64,000 bases of DNA from a virus. A program made the position numbers and the translations under genes. The DNA is taken from positions 1-64,000 of IMG/VR virus record IMGVR_UViG_3300034105_003151. One strand, 5' to 3'. Shown here in pieces: positions 2,759-18,526 of this stretch. Every line of letters begins with the position of its first letter. Within the stretch, counting starts at the first letter, position 1. The notes below the pieces were generated by a model. That model did not search any database and was not told the DNA's origin. It saw nothing but the letters and a program-made list of their open reading frames with translations.

Positions 2759-2958
2759 TGGAACAAATAATGAATAAATATGAAGAAGTAATTAAAAGAC
2801 TTGAAAGTGTTAAATATCTTACAGATATATCAGACGCTATGATTCTTGCTCGTAAATGGTATACGGAGGGAGAGATCAGTCGGGACGATTATACGCAACT
2901 GACGATGGTTGCGGGAATGATGGAAGCTGATTGGCCTAATATCAGAAAAATCAAATGA
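2758..2958 (+). CDS. Small hypothetical protein
   Basis: A 66-residue, mostly helical acidic protein starting within the previous stop (TAATG). A second in-frame ATG four codons later is also possible. It overlaps the nucleoside hydrolase start by four bases (ATGA). No family was recognised. Confidence 0.55.
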   Translation: MEQIMNKYEEVIKRLESVKYLTDISDAMILARKWYTEGEISRDDYTQLTMVAGMMEADWPNIRKIK

Positions 2959-3830
2959 ACCTAATTGTAGAAACAGATATAGGTCATGATCCTGATGATT
3001 TTTTTGCTATCTGCTATTTAATAGCGGCTGGTGTTAATGTTAGAGCAATACTCATTTCCCCAGGCGACCCAGACCAAATAGCTATTGCTCGACTAATATG
3101 TAAAGAGACAGGTCTAGATATTCCAATAGGAACGAGTAAAACAGATCGAAATAAATTATCCTCTGGCTCTATTCATCATCAATTACTAAAAGAATACAAA
3201 TGTCCCCTTGAGCAAAAAGCAGATGGACTAGGAGTAGATATTATACAAGATATTATTACTTCCTATCCTAATAGTGAGCTATTTATTATTGGGCCAGTTT
3301 CTAGTATTGGTGCTTATATGAGTAGATATCCTGAGACTCACTTTAAAAGGGCTACAATGCAGGGAGGCTTTCTTCCCTACAGTCTATATAATCCTAAATA
3401 TCCACATCTAGATTTTATTGATAAAGTCTATATGCCTACTTTTAATCTGGCTGGTGATCCAAATGCAGGCATAATGTTTTTATCTGGCAATATTGGTCAA
3501 AGACAAATGGTTGGTAAAAATATATGTCATACAGTATTATTTAGTAGAGATATATGGAGTAATAATTTATGTCACAAGTCTAATAATCCTGCTCATACGC
3601 TATTTTGCAAAGCTGCTGATTTGTACTTTAAAAAACATAAGTCTAAAAAATTTCATGATCCTACTGCTGCCGTTTGTCATTTGTATCCAGAAATTGCACA
3701 ATGGTTTCGTGGTAATACAGTTAAAGTGAAGGAAGGCTGGACTACTAACAAAAATCTTGATGGAGACTATATTTTAGCAGATATTGATCGTGATCAGCTT
3801 TGGTCTAAATTATTTTTTTGCAACTCTTAA
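2955..3830 (+). CDS. Inosine-uridine-preferring nucleoside hydrolase-like protein
   Basis: This 291-residue protein carries the nucleoside hydrolase (IUNH) signature. ETDIGHDPDD at 6-15 is the Asp-rich calcium and ribose site, FNLAGDPNAG at 163-172 matches the family's second site, and HDPTAAV at 234-240 supplies the C-terminal His/Asp. The family cleaves the N-glycosidic bond of nucleosides to base and ribose; here it could feed base and ribose salvage. It is near family length. Substrate specificity cannot be read from the sequence. It overlaps its upstream neighbour by ATGA. Confidence 0.85.
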   Translation: MNLIVETDIGHDPDDFFAICYLIAAGVNVRAILISPGDPDQIAIARLICKETGLDIPIGTSKTDRNKLSSGSIHHQLLKEYKCPLEQKADGLGVDIIQDIITSYPNSELFIIGPVSSIGAYMSRYPETHFKRATMQGGFLPYSLYNPKYPHLDFIDKVYMPTFNLAGDPNAGIMFLSGNIGQRQMVGKNICHTVLFSRDIWSNNLCHKSNNPAHTLFCKAADLYFKKHKSKKFHDPTAAVCHLYPEIAQWFRGNTVKVKEGWTTNKNLDGDYILADIDRDQLWSKLFFCNS

Positions 3831-6096: not shown

Positions 6097-6124
6097 TTGA
6101 CAACAGTTTGTTAGGAAGTATAAT
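6097..6124 (+). promoter_or_regulatory. Sigma70-type promoter for the lipoprotein-prs-nadV operon
   Basis: TTGACA (6097-6102), a 16 nt spacer and TATAAT (6119-6124) lead into AAGGAGG. The overlapping genes that follow suggest it transcribes the lipoprotein, Prs, NAMPT and possibly the tmRNA. Confidence 0.78.
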
Positions 6125-6135
6125 AAGGAGGAAAG

Positions 6136-6390
6136 ATGAAAAAAATTTATGTAGTAATTTGTGCTAGTTGTTTACTGTTCACAGGATGTACTAAAGCTGA
6201 ATATTCTCAGTTAACAGGATTTGGTAAGGACTATAATATTTCTGTTTACTCTGGTGGACAAAAAGTAAAAGAGTTTATCTCTAGTGGCAAGGTTCTAACG
6301 GAAAAAGAATCTGATGGTTGGTTTTTTATGGATAGAGAAACAGGTAAGTTGGTTAGAATTTCTGGCACCGTAATTGTGGAGGAACGCTGA
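6136..6390 (+). CDS. Predicted lipoprotein
   Basis: An 84-residue protein with a signal peptide and LFTGC lipobox (Cys at about residue 18). The mature domain is small and beta-rich. Its stop TGA overlaps the ATG of the Prs gene, so it is co-translated with the NAD+ pair. Whether it has a role in that pathway is unknown. Confidence 0.68.
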   Translation: MKKIYVVICASCLLFTGCTKAEYSQLTGFGKDYNISVYSGGQKVKEFISSGKVLTEKESDGWFFMDRETGKLVRISGTVIVEER

Positions 6391-7277
6391 TGATTAGTCT
6401 AATTGGTAATGACAGCCCTATTGAATTTATGAACTTCCCAGATGGCGAAAGCTTTGTGAAGTTTGACTATAATAACCGCCCAATTAATATTCTCTGGCAA
6501 TATGAGAATGATGCGGAGTTCATGACCCTTGCTCAAATGTACTGGGTTATGGATGGCATAGATCGGGACGCTAGAATGCCCAAGAATCTATTTATTCCTT
6601 ACCTACCTCACGCCAGACAAGATCGTGAAGCAGCAAGTAATCAGCCGTTTTCTCTTGCGACCGCAATGCTGTTTTTGCATAATATCATTGAATTTACTAA
6701 TACTAAAGTATTTCTTCTTGATGCTCATTCCTTAGAGTTTGCCAAACTTGAAGAATACTTGAAAGATTTGGGTAAGAATATCCTAGACACCCAATCTATT
6801 GACTCGTCCGTATACTCCCCCCACTTGCAAAACGAGGGGTACGATGCTATCATCTGTCCAGACAAGGGAGCTTTGCGGAGAGCAAGCTTGTGGTACGATG
6901 CTTTTCTTGGATATGGTAAAAGAGTAGATTTTATTGAATGTACCAAGGTTCGTGATCCTAATACCGGCAATCTGTCTGAACCAAAACTAAGTGAAGTATA
7001 TGAGGACAGACTTCGTAAGACTAATAAGGCTTTGCTTGTTGACGATATCGGGACAGGATTTGGGACTCACATTCAACTAGGAAGGGTTCTTAAGAAGATT
7101 AATCCTAATCTGGAACTTGACTTGTTCGTTACTCACTCTAGCTTTACCCGTGGAAAAGAACCAGTACTAGAAATCTTTAACAAGGTTTATACTACAAATA
7201 GTCTTCCACAAGGCTTGAAGCAACAGGATGATCGTATTATCAGATTTGATTGCACCGAATTTTTGCCAAAAGTTTGA
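6390..7277 (+). CDS. prs: Ribose-phosphate pyrophosphokinase homologue (Prs; possible ADP-ribose pyrophosphate synthetase)
   Basis: A 295-residue PRPP synthetase-family protein. YLPHARQDRE at 71-80 is the ATP-binding region, LLDAHS at 109-114 and CPDKGA at 156-161 match family segments, and VDDIGTGFGT at 217-226 occupies the ribose-phosphate loop. That loop differs from the usual DDxxDTxGT: the second Asp-Thr is missing. Housekeeping Prs makes PRPP from ribose-5-phosphate and ATP. In the phage NARP1 pathway the homologue pyrophosphorylates ADP-ribose. The altered loop and the NAMPT neighbour 22 bases downstream favour the second role, but substrate choice is inference. Confidence 0.9.
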   Translation: MISLIGNDSPIEFMNFPDGESFVKFDYNNRPINILWQYENDAEFMTLAQMYWVMDGIDRDARMPKNLFIPYLPHARQDREAASNQPFSLATAMLFLHNIIEFTNTKVFLLDAHSLEFAKLEEYLKDLGKNILDTQSIDSSVYSPHLQNEGYDAIICPDKGALRRASLWYDAFLGYGKRVDFIECTKVRDPNTGNLSEPKLSEVYEDRLRKTNKALLVDDIGTGFGTHIQLGRVLKKINPNLELDLFVTHSSFTRGKEPVLEIFNKVYTTNSLPQGLKQQDDRIIRFDCTEFLPKV

Positions 7278-7299
7278 ATAGAAAACGAGGAAATAAAAA

Positions 7300-8784
7300 A
7301 TGACACTTGAAATTAACCCGATTCTTTTGAGCGATAGTTATAAGCAGTCTCATTGGATGATGTACCCCGAAGGTATTATCAAACTGTACTCCAATTTTAC
7401 CGCTCGTTCTTTCAAGCATCTTAAGACTGATAAGGCTGTATTTTTTGGCCTACAGTATTATCTTAAGGAATATCTTATAGATCAATGGCAGCGTAATTTC
7501 TTCGACAAGCCTTTTGAGGAAGTAGAGAAGGAATTCAAACGATTCCACAAGCATTTCAGCCAGTACGATATGCCAACAGAGCATATTCGTAAGCTGCATA
7601 ATCTTGGATATCTTCCTATTCGTATTAAGGCTTTGCCAGAAGGATGCAAGGTTAAGGAAAAGGTTCCCTTTTTCACTATTACTAACACTCATCCAGATTT
7701 TGCTTGGCTGGTCAATTTTCTAGAAACTCAGATGAGTACTTCTATTTGGGACTACTGTGTTAATGCAACCATTGCTAATGAATATCGCCAGATTCTAAAC
7801 AGGTGGGCGGATAAGACTTGTGAGGATCGAAACTTTGTTCAGTGGCAGGGACATGATTTTAGTCAGCGTGGACGCAGCAGCACTGAAAGCACCTTTAATC
7901 AGATGGGGCATCTTCTGTCTTTTACTGGAACGGATACTATCCCATCGGTGATTGCAGCAGAAAAGTATTACAACGCAAATATGGAAAATGAACTGATTGC
8001 TGCTAGTGTTCCCGCAACAGAACATAGTGTTATGACTAGCTATGGAAAAGAAGAAGAGATTGTGGCTTTCGAAAGAATGCTTGATCTTTTCCCAACTGGA
8101 ATTGTCAGCATTGTTAGTGATAGCTTTGATCTCTGGCAGGTTTGTACTACTTTCGTTACCCAGCTTAAGGACAAGATTCTAGCCCGAAATGGCAAGCTGG
8201 TTATTCGTCCAGATAGCGGTGATCCGGTGGATATTGTTTGCGGAGTAAATCCTTGTGGGCCAGACTTTGACGAGAACTGTCAAGTCTACTCTTTGGAACA
8301 AACTAAGGGAGTTGTCGAACTTCTTTGGGAAGTATTTGGTGGAACAATTAATAGCAAGGGCTATAAGGTTCTTGATAGTCATATCGGAGTAATCTATGGA
8401 GATAGCATTAGTCGTGAACGTGCGGAAGCTATTTGCCGTAGGCTTGAGGCTAAGGGTTTTGCAAGCAACAATGTTGTATTCGGAATTGGTAGCTATACTT
8501 ACAACTACAATACGCGAGATAGTCTTGGTATTGCTGTAAAGAGTACTTACTGTGAAGTTGATGGAGAAGCGCGAAATATCTTCAAAGACCCAGTTACTGA
8601 TGATGGTATGAAGAAGAGTGCCCGTGGACTTCTAAGGATTGATCTTGTGGATGGAGAATATGTTCTCCGTGACGAGGTAACTCCAGAAGAGGAAGCTGGC
8701 GGCGAATTCAAGGTGGTGTATGAGGACGGTAAGTTACTTGTGGATCATACTCTACAAGAAATTAGAGATAGGCTTAATAAATAA
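7300..8784 (+). CDS. nadV: Nicotinamide phosphoribosyltransferase homologue (NAMPT/NadV; possible nicotinamide ADP-ribose transferase)
   Basis: This 494-residue full-length NAMPT-family enzyme joins nicotinamide to an activated ribose. Motifs include SDSYKQSHW (11-19), GHDFSQRG (184-191), GTDTI with the substrate Asp (210-214), PATEHS with the catalytic His at about 242, SDSFD (273-277) and RPDSGDP (303-309). Classical NAMPT uses PRPP and makes NMN. In NARP1 the homologue uses ADPR-pyrophosphate and makes NAD+ directly. No NMN adenylyltransferase was found in the window, which suits NARP1. AGGAAATAAAA precedes the start and the tmRNA follows immediately. Confidence 0.93.
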   Translation: MTLEINPILLSDSYKQSHWMMYPEGIIKLYSNFTARSFKHLKTDKAVFFGLQYYLKEYLIDQWQRNFFDKPFEEVEKEFKRFHKHFSQYDMPTEHIRKLHNLGYLPIRIKALPEGCKVKEKVPFFTITNTHPDFAWLVNFLETQMSTSIWDYCVNATIANEYRQILNRWADKTCEDRNFVQWQGHDFSQRGRSSTESTFNQMGHLLSFTGTDTIPSVIAAEKYYNANMENELIAASVPATEHSVMTSYGKEEEIVAFERMLDLFPTGIVSIVSDSFDLWQVCTTFVTQLKDKILARNGKLVIRPDSGDPVDIVCGVNPCGPDFDENCQVYSLEQTKGVVELLWEVFGGTINSKGYKVLDSHIGVIYGDSISRERAEAICRRLEAKGFASNNVVFGIGSYTYNYNTRDSLGIAVKSTYCEVDGEARNIFKDPVTDDGMKKSARGLLRIDLVDGEYVLRDEVTPEEEAGGEFKVVYEDGKLLVDHTLQEIRDRLNK

Positions 8785-9137
8785 GGGGGTGAAAGGTTTC
8801 GACTAGATATAGATACTAACATTAGCAAGTAGTGGTTGATCGGCAGGCCACTTTAAAAGTCGATCAAAACGCTTTAACTGGCGAAACTCAGTTAGCTCTC
8901 GCTGCCTGATAAAAAGGGCATCGGCGGACTACGATACCTATGGAGAGAGGGTATCAAAAGTCTGACGCAAATCTCTCTGCTATTAGAATATCCAATATAT
9001 TCTAGTCTAAGATTAATTGGTGCTGGCAGAAGAGTTTGCTTACTTTGCAATCTGCCCTAAGACTTATGAGTAAGATAAACTTGTAGAAAGTGTTTTTAGA
9101 AATATCCTAGGACGGGGCTTCGATGCCCCCACCTCCA
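8785..9137 (+). ncRNA. ssrA: Transfer-messenger RNA (tmRNA)
   Basis: The 353 nt RNA starts with GGGGGTG and ends with CACCTCC plus discriminator A, which pair as a 7 bp acceptor stem with one G-U. The 3' end has a TTCGAT-type T arm, and the 5' end has the D-like GGTTTCGACTAG. An internal tag frame at about 8871-8909 reads ALTGETQLALAA followed by TGA TAA, ending in the ALAA proteolysis signal. CCA is not encoded. tmRNA rescues stalled ribosomes and tags the product for ClpXP-type degradation. It follows the NAMPT stop directly and has no SmpB gene nearby, so it would use host SmpB. Confidence 0.93.
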
Positions 9138-9155
9138 CTTAATAAGGAATAGTAT

Positions 9156-17749: not shown

Positions 17750-17984
17750 ACTGAAGATGTTTTGTAAATCGTTAGTATTTCATATTTGGTCTGGTTTACC
17801 AAAATCTACCAAAAAACAAATTCATGAAAGATTTGTGACTTGTTTTGGGTGTGATAAATATGATAAGATTAAAAGTCAGTGTTTGGTGTGTGGATGCAAT
17901 GTGAATAACAAAAAAGTATTTTTAAACAAATTAGCTTGGGCAGATCAAGAATGTCCTTTAGGAAAATGGGGGAAGATAAAATGA
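17721..17984 (+). CDS. Cysteine-rich zinc-binding protein
   Basis: An 87-residue protein with the pattern CFGCDKY ... CLVCGC ... CPLGKW (about 42-83), typical of a small phage/bacterial zinc-binding family. The N terminus is basic and amphipathic. GAGGAAAG precedes the ATG. Function is unknown; the next gene is the macrodomain. Confidence 0.65.
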   Translation: MKTWKTIGSRLKMFCKSLVFHIWSGLPKSTKKQIHERFVTCFGCDKYDKIKSQCLVCGCNVNNKKVFLNKLAWADQECPLGKWGKIK

Positions 17985-18526
17985 CAACTCTAAATAAAAT
18001 ACCTGCTTATATTGAAGCAAAGGGCGATATTTTCCATTATTCTGCAAATAGAATTAATGAGGGTGTGAACGGTTGCCATGTTATTATTCCTCATGTTTGC
18101 AATAATGTTAATGGTTTTGGATCAGGCTTTGCAAGAGATGTGTCTATTAAGTATCACACTGTAAAAGATAACTTTCATTTACTGGGTAACAAGGCTCAGT
18201 TAGGATATGTTCAATTTGTGGAAGTAGCTAAAGATAATAAATATGGACATAAGTTATTTTTTGCTAATATGATCGCCCAAAATGGTACTATTAATAAATT
18301 CAATAATCCTAGACCACTAAATTATCTAGCTTTGGCTAAAAGTATGGAGAAGGTAAAGGATTTTGCAAAAGAATTATCTAAGTTTACAGATGGTACTAAA
18401 GTAGAAATTCATGCTCCGAAGTTTGGTAGCGGGTTAGCTGGTGGACAATGGGCTTTTATCACTGATCTTATCGAAGATATCTGGTCTGCGAAAAATGGCC
18501 TTAACGTTTATGTTTATTCAAAATGA
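17981..18526 (+). CDS. Macrodomain protein (ADP-ribose binding or processing)
   Basis: The ATG at 17981 follows GGGGGAAG and gives 181 residues; a frame reading from 17936 would overlap the zinc gene. The sequence fits a macrodomain: KGDIFHYSA near the N terminus, HVCNNVNGFGSGFA (38-51) as the ADP-ribose loop, and a second glycine-rich loop, KFGSGLAGG. Family members bind ADP-ribose, remove it from targets or hydrolyse ADPR derivatives. With the Prs-NAMPT pair in the same genome, a role in ADPR handling or anti-defence is an attractive inference. Confidence 0.82.
   Translation: MTTLNKIPAYIEAKGDIFHYSANRINEGVNGCHVIIPHVCNNVNGFGSGFARDVSIKYHTVKDNFHLLGNKAQLGYVQFVEVAKDNKYGHKLFFANMIAQNGTINKFNNPRPLNYLALAKSMEKVKDFAKELSKFTDGTKVEIHAPKFGSGLAGGQWAFITDLIEDIWSAKNGLNVYVYSK

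What the first reader, a model, noticed from the sequence alone, without database searches (positions are those of the whole stretch)
6390..8784. Candidate NARP1-type NAD+ reconstitution pair
A PRPP-synthetase homologue and a NAMPT homologue lie side by side in one operon. In phages this is the arrangement of NARP1, in which the first enzyme makes ADP-ribose pyrophosphate and the second joins it to nicotinamide, restoring NAD+ destroyed by host defences such as Thoeris-type or SIR2-type systems. The Prs ribose-phosphate loop (VDDIGTGFGT) departs from the usual DDxxDT and no NMN adenylyltransferase is seen in the window. These support the ADP-ribose route over simple NMN synthesis. A preceding lipoprotein gene in the same unit is unexplained.
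Basis: partly seen in the sequence, partly recalled or inferred. Interest (0 to 1): 0.85.

Follow-up and report, generated by a model that had tools for sequence, protein, structure and literature searches.

The report
Phage NAD+ repair enzyme pair (NARP1)
This phage carries two adjacent genes whose sequences match the known two-enzyme pathway (NARP1) by which phages rebuild NAD+ destroyed by bacterial defences; it is a fairly ordinary new example, with an unusual substrate loop in the first enzyme that gives a handle on how that enzyme chooses ADP-ribose.

Summary
A 295-aa Prs-like ORF (6390-7277) and a 494-aa NAMPT-like ORF (7300-8784) lie side by side, intact, in a 151-kb phage record, behind a perfect sigma-70-type promoter. 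The second protein carries the full published Namat signature (GSYTYNYNTRD) and falls in the Namat clade with SPbetaL1 and ICP1, away from canonical Nampt. The first falls on the Adps side, away from six Prs. No NMN adenylyltransferase or Nudix family hit occurs in the record, and all ten relatives searched encode an Adps. In Bacteroidota, relatives sit in operons with ADP-ribose-handling genes, whereas canonical Nampt loci mostly carry an NMNAT-like gene instead. The loop VDDIGTGFGTH is indeed odd, but it differs from tested Adps too. A relative with DDIGDGFRTH links it to the usual Adps loop DDICDGGxTF, so it looks derived, not Prs-like. Across 40 Adps and 6 Prs, loop positions 6 and 10 separate the families. 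The lipoprotein gene is a common phage gene, probably not a NARP1 part. Biochemistry is untested. It is a new member of a known, common kind.

The parts
6097..6124 (+). Promoter-like site TTGACA-16-TATAAT, 12 of 12 consensus matches, just upstream of the lipoprotein-Adps-Namat unit
   Evidence: 13 exact matches in the 151-kb record against 0.7 expected from shuffles; function not tested
6136..6390 (+). Small lipoprotein-like ORF (84 aa) in the same apparent unit; probably not a NARP1 component
   Evidence: homologues in 38 phage records, none next to NARP1 in the two opened
6390..7277 (+). Adps candidate (ADP-ribose pyrophosphate synthetase; Prs-like fold)
   Evidence: PHROG 619; Adps side of tree, 100/99 against six Prs; AlphaFold2 pLDDT 89.3, pTM 0.88; best PDB folds all PRPP synthetases
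7041..7070 (+). Adps ribose-phosphate loop DDIGTGFGTH (Adps residues 218-227)
   Evidence: coordinates computed from residue numbers in alignment A3 (D218-H227)
7300..8784 (+). Namat candidate (nicotinamide ADP-ribose transferase; NAMPT-like fold)
   Evidence: PHROG 448; 510 bits to PDB 9w5x/9w5w against about 232 for human Nampt; Namat clade SH-aLRT 100
7414..7419 (+). Namat selectivity-clamp loop residues K39-H40 (SPbetaL1 R40 position and the next residue)
   Evidence: role as described in PMC12774641
8488..8520 (+). Namat selectivity-clamp helix signature GSYTYNYNTRD (residues 397-407)
   Evidence: matches published GSX-phi-X-phi-X-phi-TRD

Best explanation
The two genes form a NARP1 pathway. 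ORF 6390-7277 (Adps) transfers pyrophosphate from ATP to ADP-ribose, giving ADP-ribose pyrophosphate. ORF 7300-8784 (Namat) joins that to nicotinamide, giving NAD+ directly and bypassing NMN and NMN adenylyltransferase. During infection this would rebuild NAD+ that host defences (TIR, SIR2 or SEFIR effectors) have cleaved to ADP-ribose and nicotinamide. Shown here by sequence: both ORFs intact, all Namat contact residues kept or conservatively replaced, clamp signature complete, Adps and Namat phylogenetic placement, Prs-like predicted fold. Inferred: substrate choice, catalysis, early expression from the consensus promoter, and the anti-defence role.
For: Namat: closest solved structures 9w5x/9w5w (510 bits) and 9ke8 (427 bits), against about 232 bits for human Nampt; the residues of 9w5x match the numbering of SPbetaL1 Namat in PMC12774641. 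Clamp signature GSYTYNYNTRD present; 12 canonical Nampt sequences carry GxGGxLLQ-type motifs instead. Of 20 NAD+-contact sites, 17 are identical to SPbetaL1 and the other three (K39, S369, Y399) are as in ICP1. Tree: Namat clade of 40 with SH-aLRT 100, including SPbetaL1 and ICP1. Adps: own side of the tree against six Prs, 100/99; loop positions 6 and 10 of the Adps type. No PF01467 or PF00293 match in the record. Adps present in 10 of 10 related records, even where not adjacent. Canonical Nampt loci carry an NMNAT-like neighbour in 10 of 12 and no Adps; Namat loci carry no such neighbour. Bacteroidota relatives pair Adps-Namat with NrtR, NADAR, KptA, macrodomain and ADP-ribosylglycohydrolase genes. 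SPbetaL1 NARP1 is biochemically shown (PMC12774641); cells infected by ICP1 with NrsAB keep more NAD+ (PMC11559045).
Against: No biochemistry was possible. The Adps is only about 25% identical to tested Adps enzymes and its loop differs from all of them. Namat can also make NMN from PRPP in vitro (PMC12774641), so sequence cannot exclude dual use. [quoted passage not shown] The phage's host and its defences are unknown.
Confidence: 0.9

Rival explanations
1. Ordinary NMN salvage: the first enzyme makes PRPP from ribose-5-phosphate, the second makes NMN, and the host's NMN adenylyltransferase finishes NAD+.
For: Prs-like and NAMPT-like folds; residual PRPP use by Namat in vitro (PMC12774641); a host NMNAT would suffice.
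Against: Adenine-binding clamp conserved; first enzyme groups with Adps, not Prs; canonical phage Nampt loci usually carry their own NMNAT-like gene, none here; neighbours in bacteria handle ADP-ribose.
Confidence: 0.06
2. NARP2-type or KVP40-type salvage with canonical Nampt plus a phage NMN adenylyltransferase.
For: NAMPT homologue present.
Against: No PF01467 or PF00293 match in the 151-kb record; Nampt motif GxGGxLLQ absent.
Confidence: 0.01
3. The loop variant marks an Adps that prefers a different ADP-ribose derivative (for example 2'-phospho-ADP-ribose from NADP+), so that the pair rebuilds a different dinucleotide.
For: Loop DDIGTGFGTH is shared by four viral genomes and differs from all tested Adps.
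Against: Partner Namat clamp is unchanged (GSYTYNYNTRD), also in relatives whose Adps has the usual loop, such as L014.
Confidence: 0.03

Closest known systems
NARP1 of Bacillus phage SPbetaL1 (OQ921341; Adps WIT26982.1, Namat WIT26983.1)
   Same: Adjacent Adps-Namat order; Namat 51% identical with the same clamp signature and catalytic residues; no NMNAT needed.
   Different: Adps about 25% identical; ribose-phosphate loop DDIGTGFGTH instead of DDLSSFGGTF; clamp loop K39-H40 instead of R40; followed directly by a tmRNA gene.
NrsAB of Vibrio phage ICP1
   Same: Adjacent pair; Namat-type protein 48% identical with GSYTYQYVTRD; clamp loop lysine as here.
   Different: Adps loop DDICDGAASF; different phage lineage.
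NARP1 of mycobacteriophages (DyoEdafos type) with RyDEP
   Same: Adps-Namat pair.
   Different: No RyR-domain (PF02026) match in this record.
Canonical phage NAD+ salvage (Nampt plus NadM-type NMNAT-Nudix, for example RHph_X66, VspSw_1, CcrPW)
   Same: NAMPT fold and nicotinamide chemistry.
   Different: GxGGxLLQ motif, adjacent NMNAT-Nudix and no Adps there; the reverse here.

Membership tests
NARP1 (Namat) | Selectivity-clamp helix signature GSX-phi-X-phi-X-phi-TRD | tested here: met
   GSYTYNYNTRD at residues 397-407
NARP1 (Namat) | Clamp loop stacking residue: Arg at third position, or Lys/Tyr with the next residue stacking | tested here: met
   K39 followed by H40 at the SPbetaL1 R40 position; that H40 stacks is inferred
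NARP1 (Namat) | Conserved Nampt-like catalytic core (F189, D215, R306, D308, catalytic His) | tested here: met
   F187, D212, R303, D305 and ATEHS motif present
NARP1 (Namat) | Phylogenetic placement with tested Namat, apart from Nampt | tested here: met
   SH-aLRT 100 for the Namat clade; 12 Nampt outside
NARP1 (Adps) | Adps encoded nearby | tested here: met
   Adjacent ORF 6390-7277 on the Adps side of the tree, 100/99
NARP1 (Adps) | Published Adps sequence or structural signature | not testable with these tools
   PMC12774641 states that the Adps structure and selectivity are unresolved; profile search of the PDB found only PRPP synthetases and other phosphoribosyltransferases
NARP1 | NAD+ made from ADP-ribose, ATP and nicotinamide | not testable with these tools
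   needs purified enzymes
NARP1 | Overcomes an NAD+-depleting defence in cells | not testable with these tools
   needs plaque or viability assays
Housekeeping Prs | R5P loop DDxx(D)TGGT(L/I) and placement with Prs | tested here: not met
   loop DDIGTGFGTH; outside the Prs clade
Canonical Nampt or NARP2 with own NMNAT | GxGGxLLQ motif and an NMNAT gene | tested here: not met

The most novel reading that the evidence does not exclude
The DDIGTGFGTH lineage of Adps has changed its sugar-phosphate loop (Gly to Phe at position 7, Phe to His at position 10) so that its substrate range or regulation differs from known Adps, for example accepting phosphorylated ADP-ribose, or ADP-ribose released from macromolecules by the phage's own macrodomain protein (17936-18526).
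Probability: 0.07. Interest if true: 0.6.

Novelty: new member of a known kind. Interest (0 to 1): 0.35.

Why it matters
NARP1 is already known and common in phages, so the pair itself adds one more example in a large uncultivated phage. What is useful is the comparison. PMC12774641 calls Adps selectivity obscure and its structure unresolved. The loop positions that separate 40 Adps from 6 Prs, and a lineage that varies them through a visible intermediate, give a direct mutational test of how Adps picks ADP-ribose over ribose-5-phosphate. [quoted passage not shown] The bacterial operons with NADAR, KptA and NrtR suggest a wider role in ADP-ribose recycling.

Tried and rejected
Single-protein scan of viral contigs with the Adps found no relatives; the two-row alignment found only the L016 contig again. 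The annotation of a 'bifunctional NMN adenylyltransferase/ADP-ribose pyrophosphatase' beside a Namat in Acinetobacter phage MD-2021a looked like a counterexample; the protein matches the NrtR-type Nudix regulator far better (3.4e-36) than an NMNAT-Nudix (2.9e-6), so I take it as a misnaming. The idea that the lipoprotein belongs to NARP1 was rejected: absent from relatives' loci and found away from NARP1 elsewhere. NADAR, RyR and Pfam Macro were not found in the record by family search, although a divergent macrodomain is present by sequence match to solved macrodomains. The original NARP1 paper (Osterman and colleagues, Nature 2024) was not in the library; what I say of Bas63 and NARP2 rests on PMC12774641 and on memory.

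Full report
What is there. ORF 6390-7277 encodes a 295-residue Prs-like protein and ORF 7300-8784 a 494-residue NAMPT-like protein, on the same strand, 22 bases apart. PHROG matches are ribose-phosphate pyrophosphokinase (1.2e-46) and nicotinamide phosphoribosyl transferase (8e-192). The window is bases 1-64000 of a 151,300-base linear virus record. A promoter-like site with 12 of 12 consensus matches lies at 6097-6124; the record holds 13 exact such sites against 0.7 expected, so transcription by a host sigma-70-type polymerase is a reasonable inference. One caution: the usual start site for this promoter would fall inside the ribosome-binding site of the lipoprotein ORF, so that ORF may not be what the promoter serves.

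Is the second protein Namat or Nampt? PMC12774641 defines Namat by a clamp helix, GSX-phi-X-phi-X-phi-TRD, and a clamp loop with Arg, or with Lys or Tyr followed by the stacking residue. The window protein has GSYTYNYNTRD and K39-H40. Its catalytic residues are all present. The best solved structures are 9w5x and 9w5w at 510 bits, against about 232 bits for human Nampt; the 9w5x residue numbering fits SPbetaL1 Namat as published. In the tree, 40 Namat-type proteins form one side with SH-aLRT 100, including SPbetaL1 and ICP1, and 12 Nampt-type proteins lie outside. All 12 of the latter lack the signature.

Is the first protein Adps or Prs? With six Prs as outgroup, the window protein lies among 40 Adps-type proteins at 100/99. 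A caution on circularity: most of those 40 were called Adps because they accompany a Namat-type gene; only SPbetaL1 (biochemistry, PMC12774641) and ICP1 (in cells, PMC11559045) are tested sequences, while EC6 and Wamburgrxpress stand in for relatives of tested phages. The AlphaFold2 model is confident (pLDDT 89.3, pTM 0.88) and all top solved folds are PRPP synthetases or their relatives. Residues invariant across the Adps set, D78, H113, D158, K186, R188, D218 and D219, are kept.

The loop. It also departs from the tested Adps loops. Relatives L016, L050 and L051 share it. Relative L077, from the record whose Namat is L054, has DDIGDGFRTH, and L079/L080 in the same supported clade (100/99) have the usual DDICDGGGTF. 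The series DDICDGGxTF, DDIGDGFRTH, DDIGTGFGTH suggests stepwise change from an ordinary Adps loop, with Gly to Phe at position 7 and Phe to His at position 10. Over all sequences, position 6 is G, Y, R or F in 40 of 40 Adps and T or S in 6 of 6 Prs; position 10 is F or H in 40 of 40 Adps and L, I or M in 6 of 6 Prs. This is a candidate Adps signature, found on the same sequences it describes, and needs an independent set.

Context. The record has no match to the NMN adenylyltransferase family PF01467 or to NUDIX; since it may be a fragment, this is modest evidence. All ten related records searched encode an Adps, including three where it is not next to the Namat gene. Of 12 canonical Nampt loci, ten have an NMNAT-like gene nearby and none an Adps (L065 has a Nudix gene only and Roth41 nothing within 3 kb). 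No Namat locus shows an NMNAT-like gene. Fifteen bacterial loci, mostly Bacteroidota, encode Namat-type proteins about 45-57% identical to the window's; 13 have an Adps adjacent. Their neighbours are NrtR regulators, NADAR, KptA, DUF4291, macrodomain and ADP-ribosylglycohydrolase genes. Among phages, L014/L015 have a NADAR gene between Adps and Namat, and L024/L025 and PaoP5 a macrodomain-like gene beside the pair. These families release, bind or sense ADP-ribose (established knowledge; see PMC9503650 and PMC11833690), which fits ADP-ribose as the substrate. PMC12774641 already suggests such a role for bacterial NARP1; the operon make-up described here may be known from earlier gene-neighbourhood surveys that I could not read.

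Partner exchange. Within the Namat clade of the window, L014/L015 carry a Namat 79% identical to the window's but an Adps from a distant lineage, and L055, L056 and L070 carry further Adps lineages. Adps therefore appears to be exchanged more freely than Namat. That agrees with the published lack of a stable complex (PMC12774641).

How it most likely works. ADP-ribose + ATP gives ADP-ribose pyrophosphate (Adps), and that plus nicotinamide gives NAD+ (Namat). Both substrates are the products of NAD+-cleaving defences. Steps shown: gene presence, integrity, residues, phylogeny. Steps inferred: catalysis, substrate preference, early expression, anti-defence function. The main rival, NMN salvage completed by the host, cannot be fully excluded because Namat retains PRPP activity in vitro.

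Verdict. A new member of a known, common kind: of 50,697 phage records, 1,940 hold a match to the NAMPT-like protein and 875 to the Prs-like protein. Interest is moderate, chiefly for the Adps loop.

Noticed in passing
window 8785-9140: A tmRNA gene (Rfam RF00023, 100 bits; tag GETQLALAA) starts on the base after the Namat stop codon, with no terminator-like site between on this strand; none was found in the loci of related phages.
   Followed up: partly
window 17936-18526: A divergent macrodomain protein (matches solved macrodomain 5e3b at 4.5e-13; 31% identical over 133 residues to a protein in a bacterial Adps-Namat locus). It could release or bind ADP-ribose.
   Followed up: partly
L086-L099: Bacteroidota operons with NrtR, Adps, Namat, DUF4291, NADAR, KptA and a phosphoesterase, sometimes with macrodomain or ADP-ribosylglycohydrolase genes: an apparent ADP-ribose recycling cluster.
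   Followed up: partly
L014 4693-5193: A NADAR-family gene (Pfam 8.7e-50) sits between the Adps and Namat genes of a close relative.
   Followed up: partly
L035 5362-6495: A 377-residue ORF joins an Adps-like part to the C-terminal part of a Namat, perhaps a deletion remnant or assembly effect.
   Followed up: no
L057-L059: The Namat gene is split into two ORFs by about 780 bases that hold another ORF, possibly a homing endonuclease insertion.
   Followed up: no
G000 107-151 kb and window 5-18 kb: Thirteen exact TTGACA-TATAAT sites against 0.7 expected, clustered in blocks of small genes: probable early regions.
   Followed up: partly
L004 4513-5322: Annotated as bifunctional NMN adenylyltransferase/ADP-ribose pyrophosphatase in Acinetobacter phage MD-2021a, but the sequence looks like an NrtR-type Nudix regulator.
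   Followed up: partly
window 2955-3830 and 781-1725: A nucleoside hydrolase-like gene and a UvdE-like UV endonuclease gene upstream of the pair.
   Followed up: no
G000 133130-133528: A short ORF with a type IV prepilin-like N-terminus (MKKGFTIVECLVVLAIVGTLVGLLLPA), similar from memory to proteins of Planctomycetes; a weak hint to the host.
   Followed up: no
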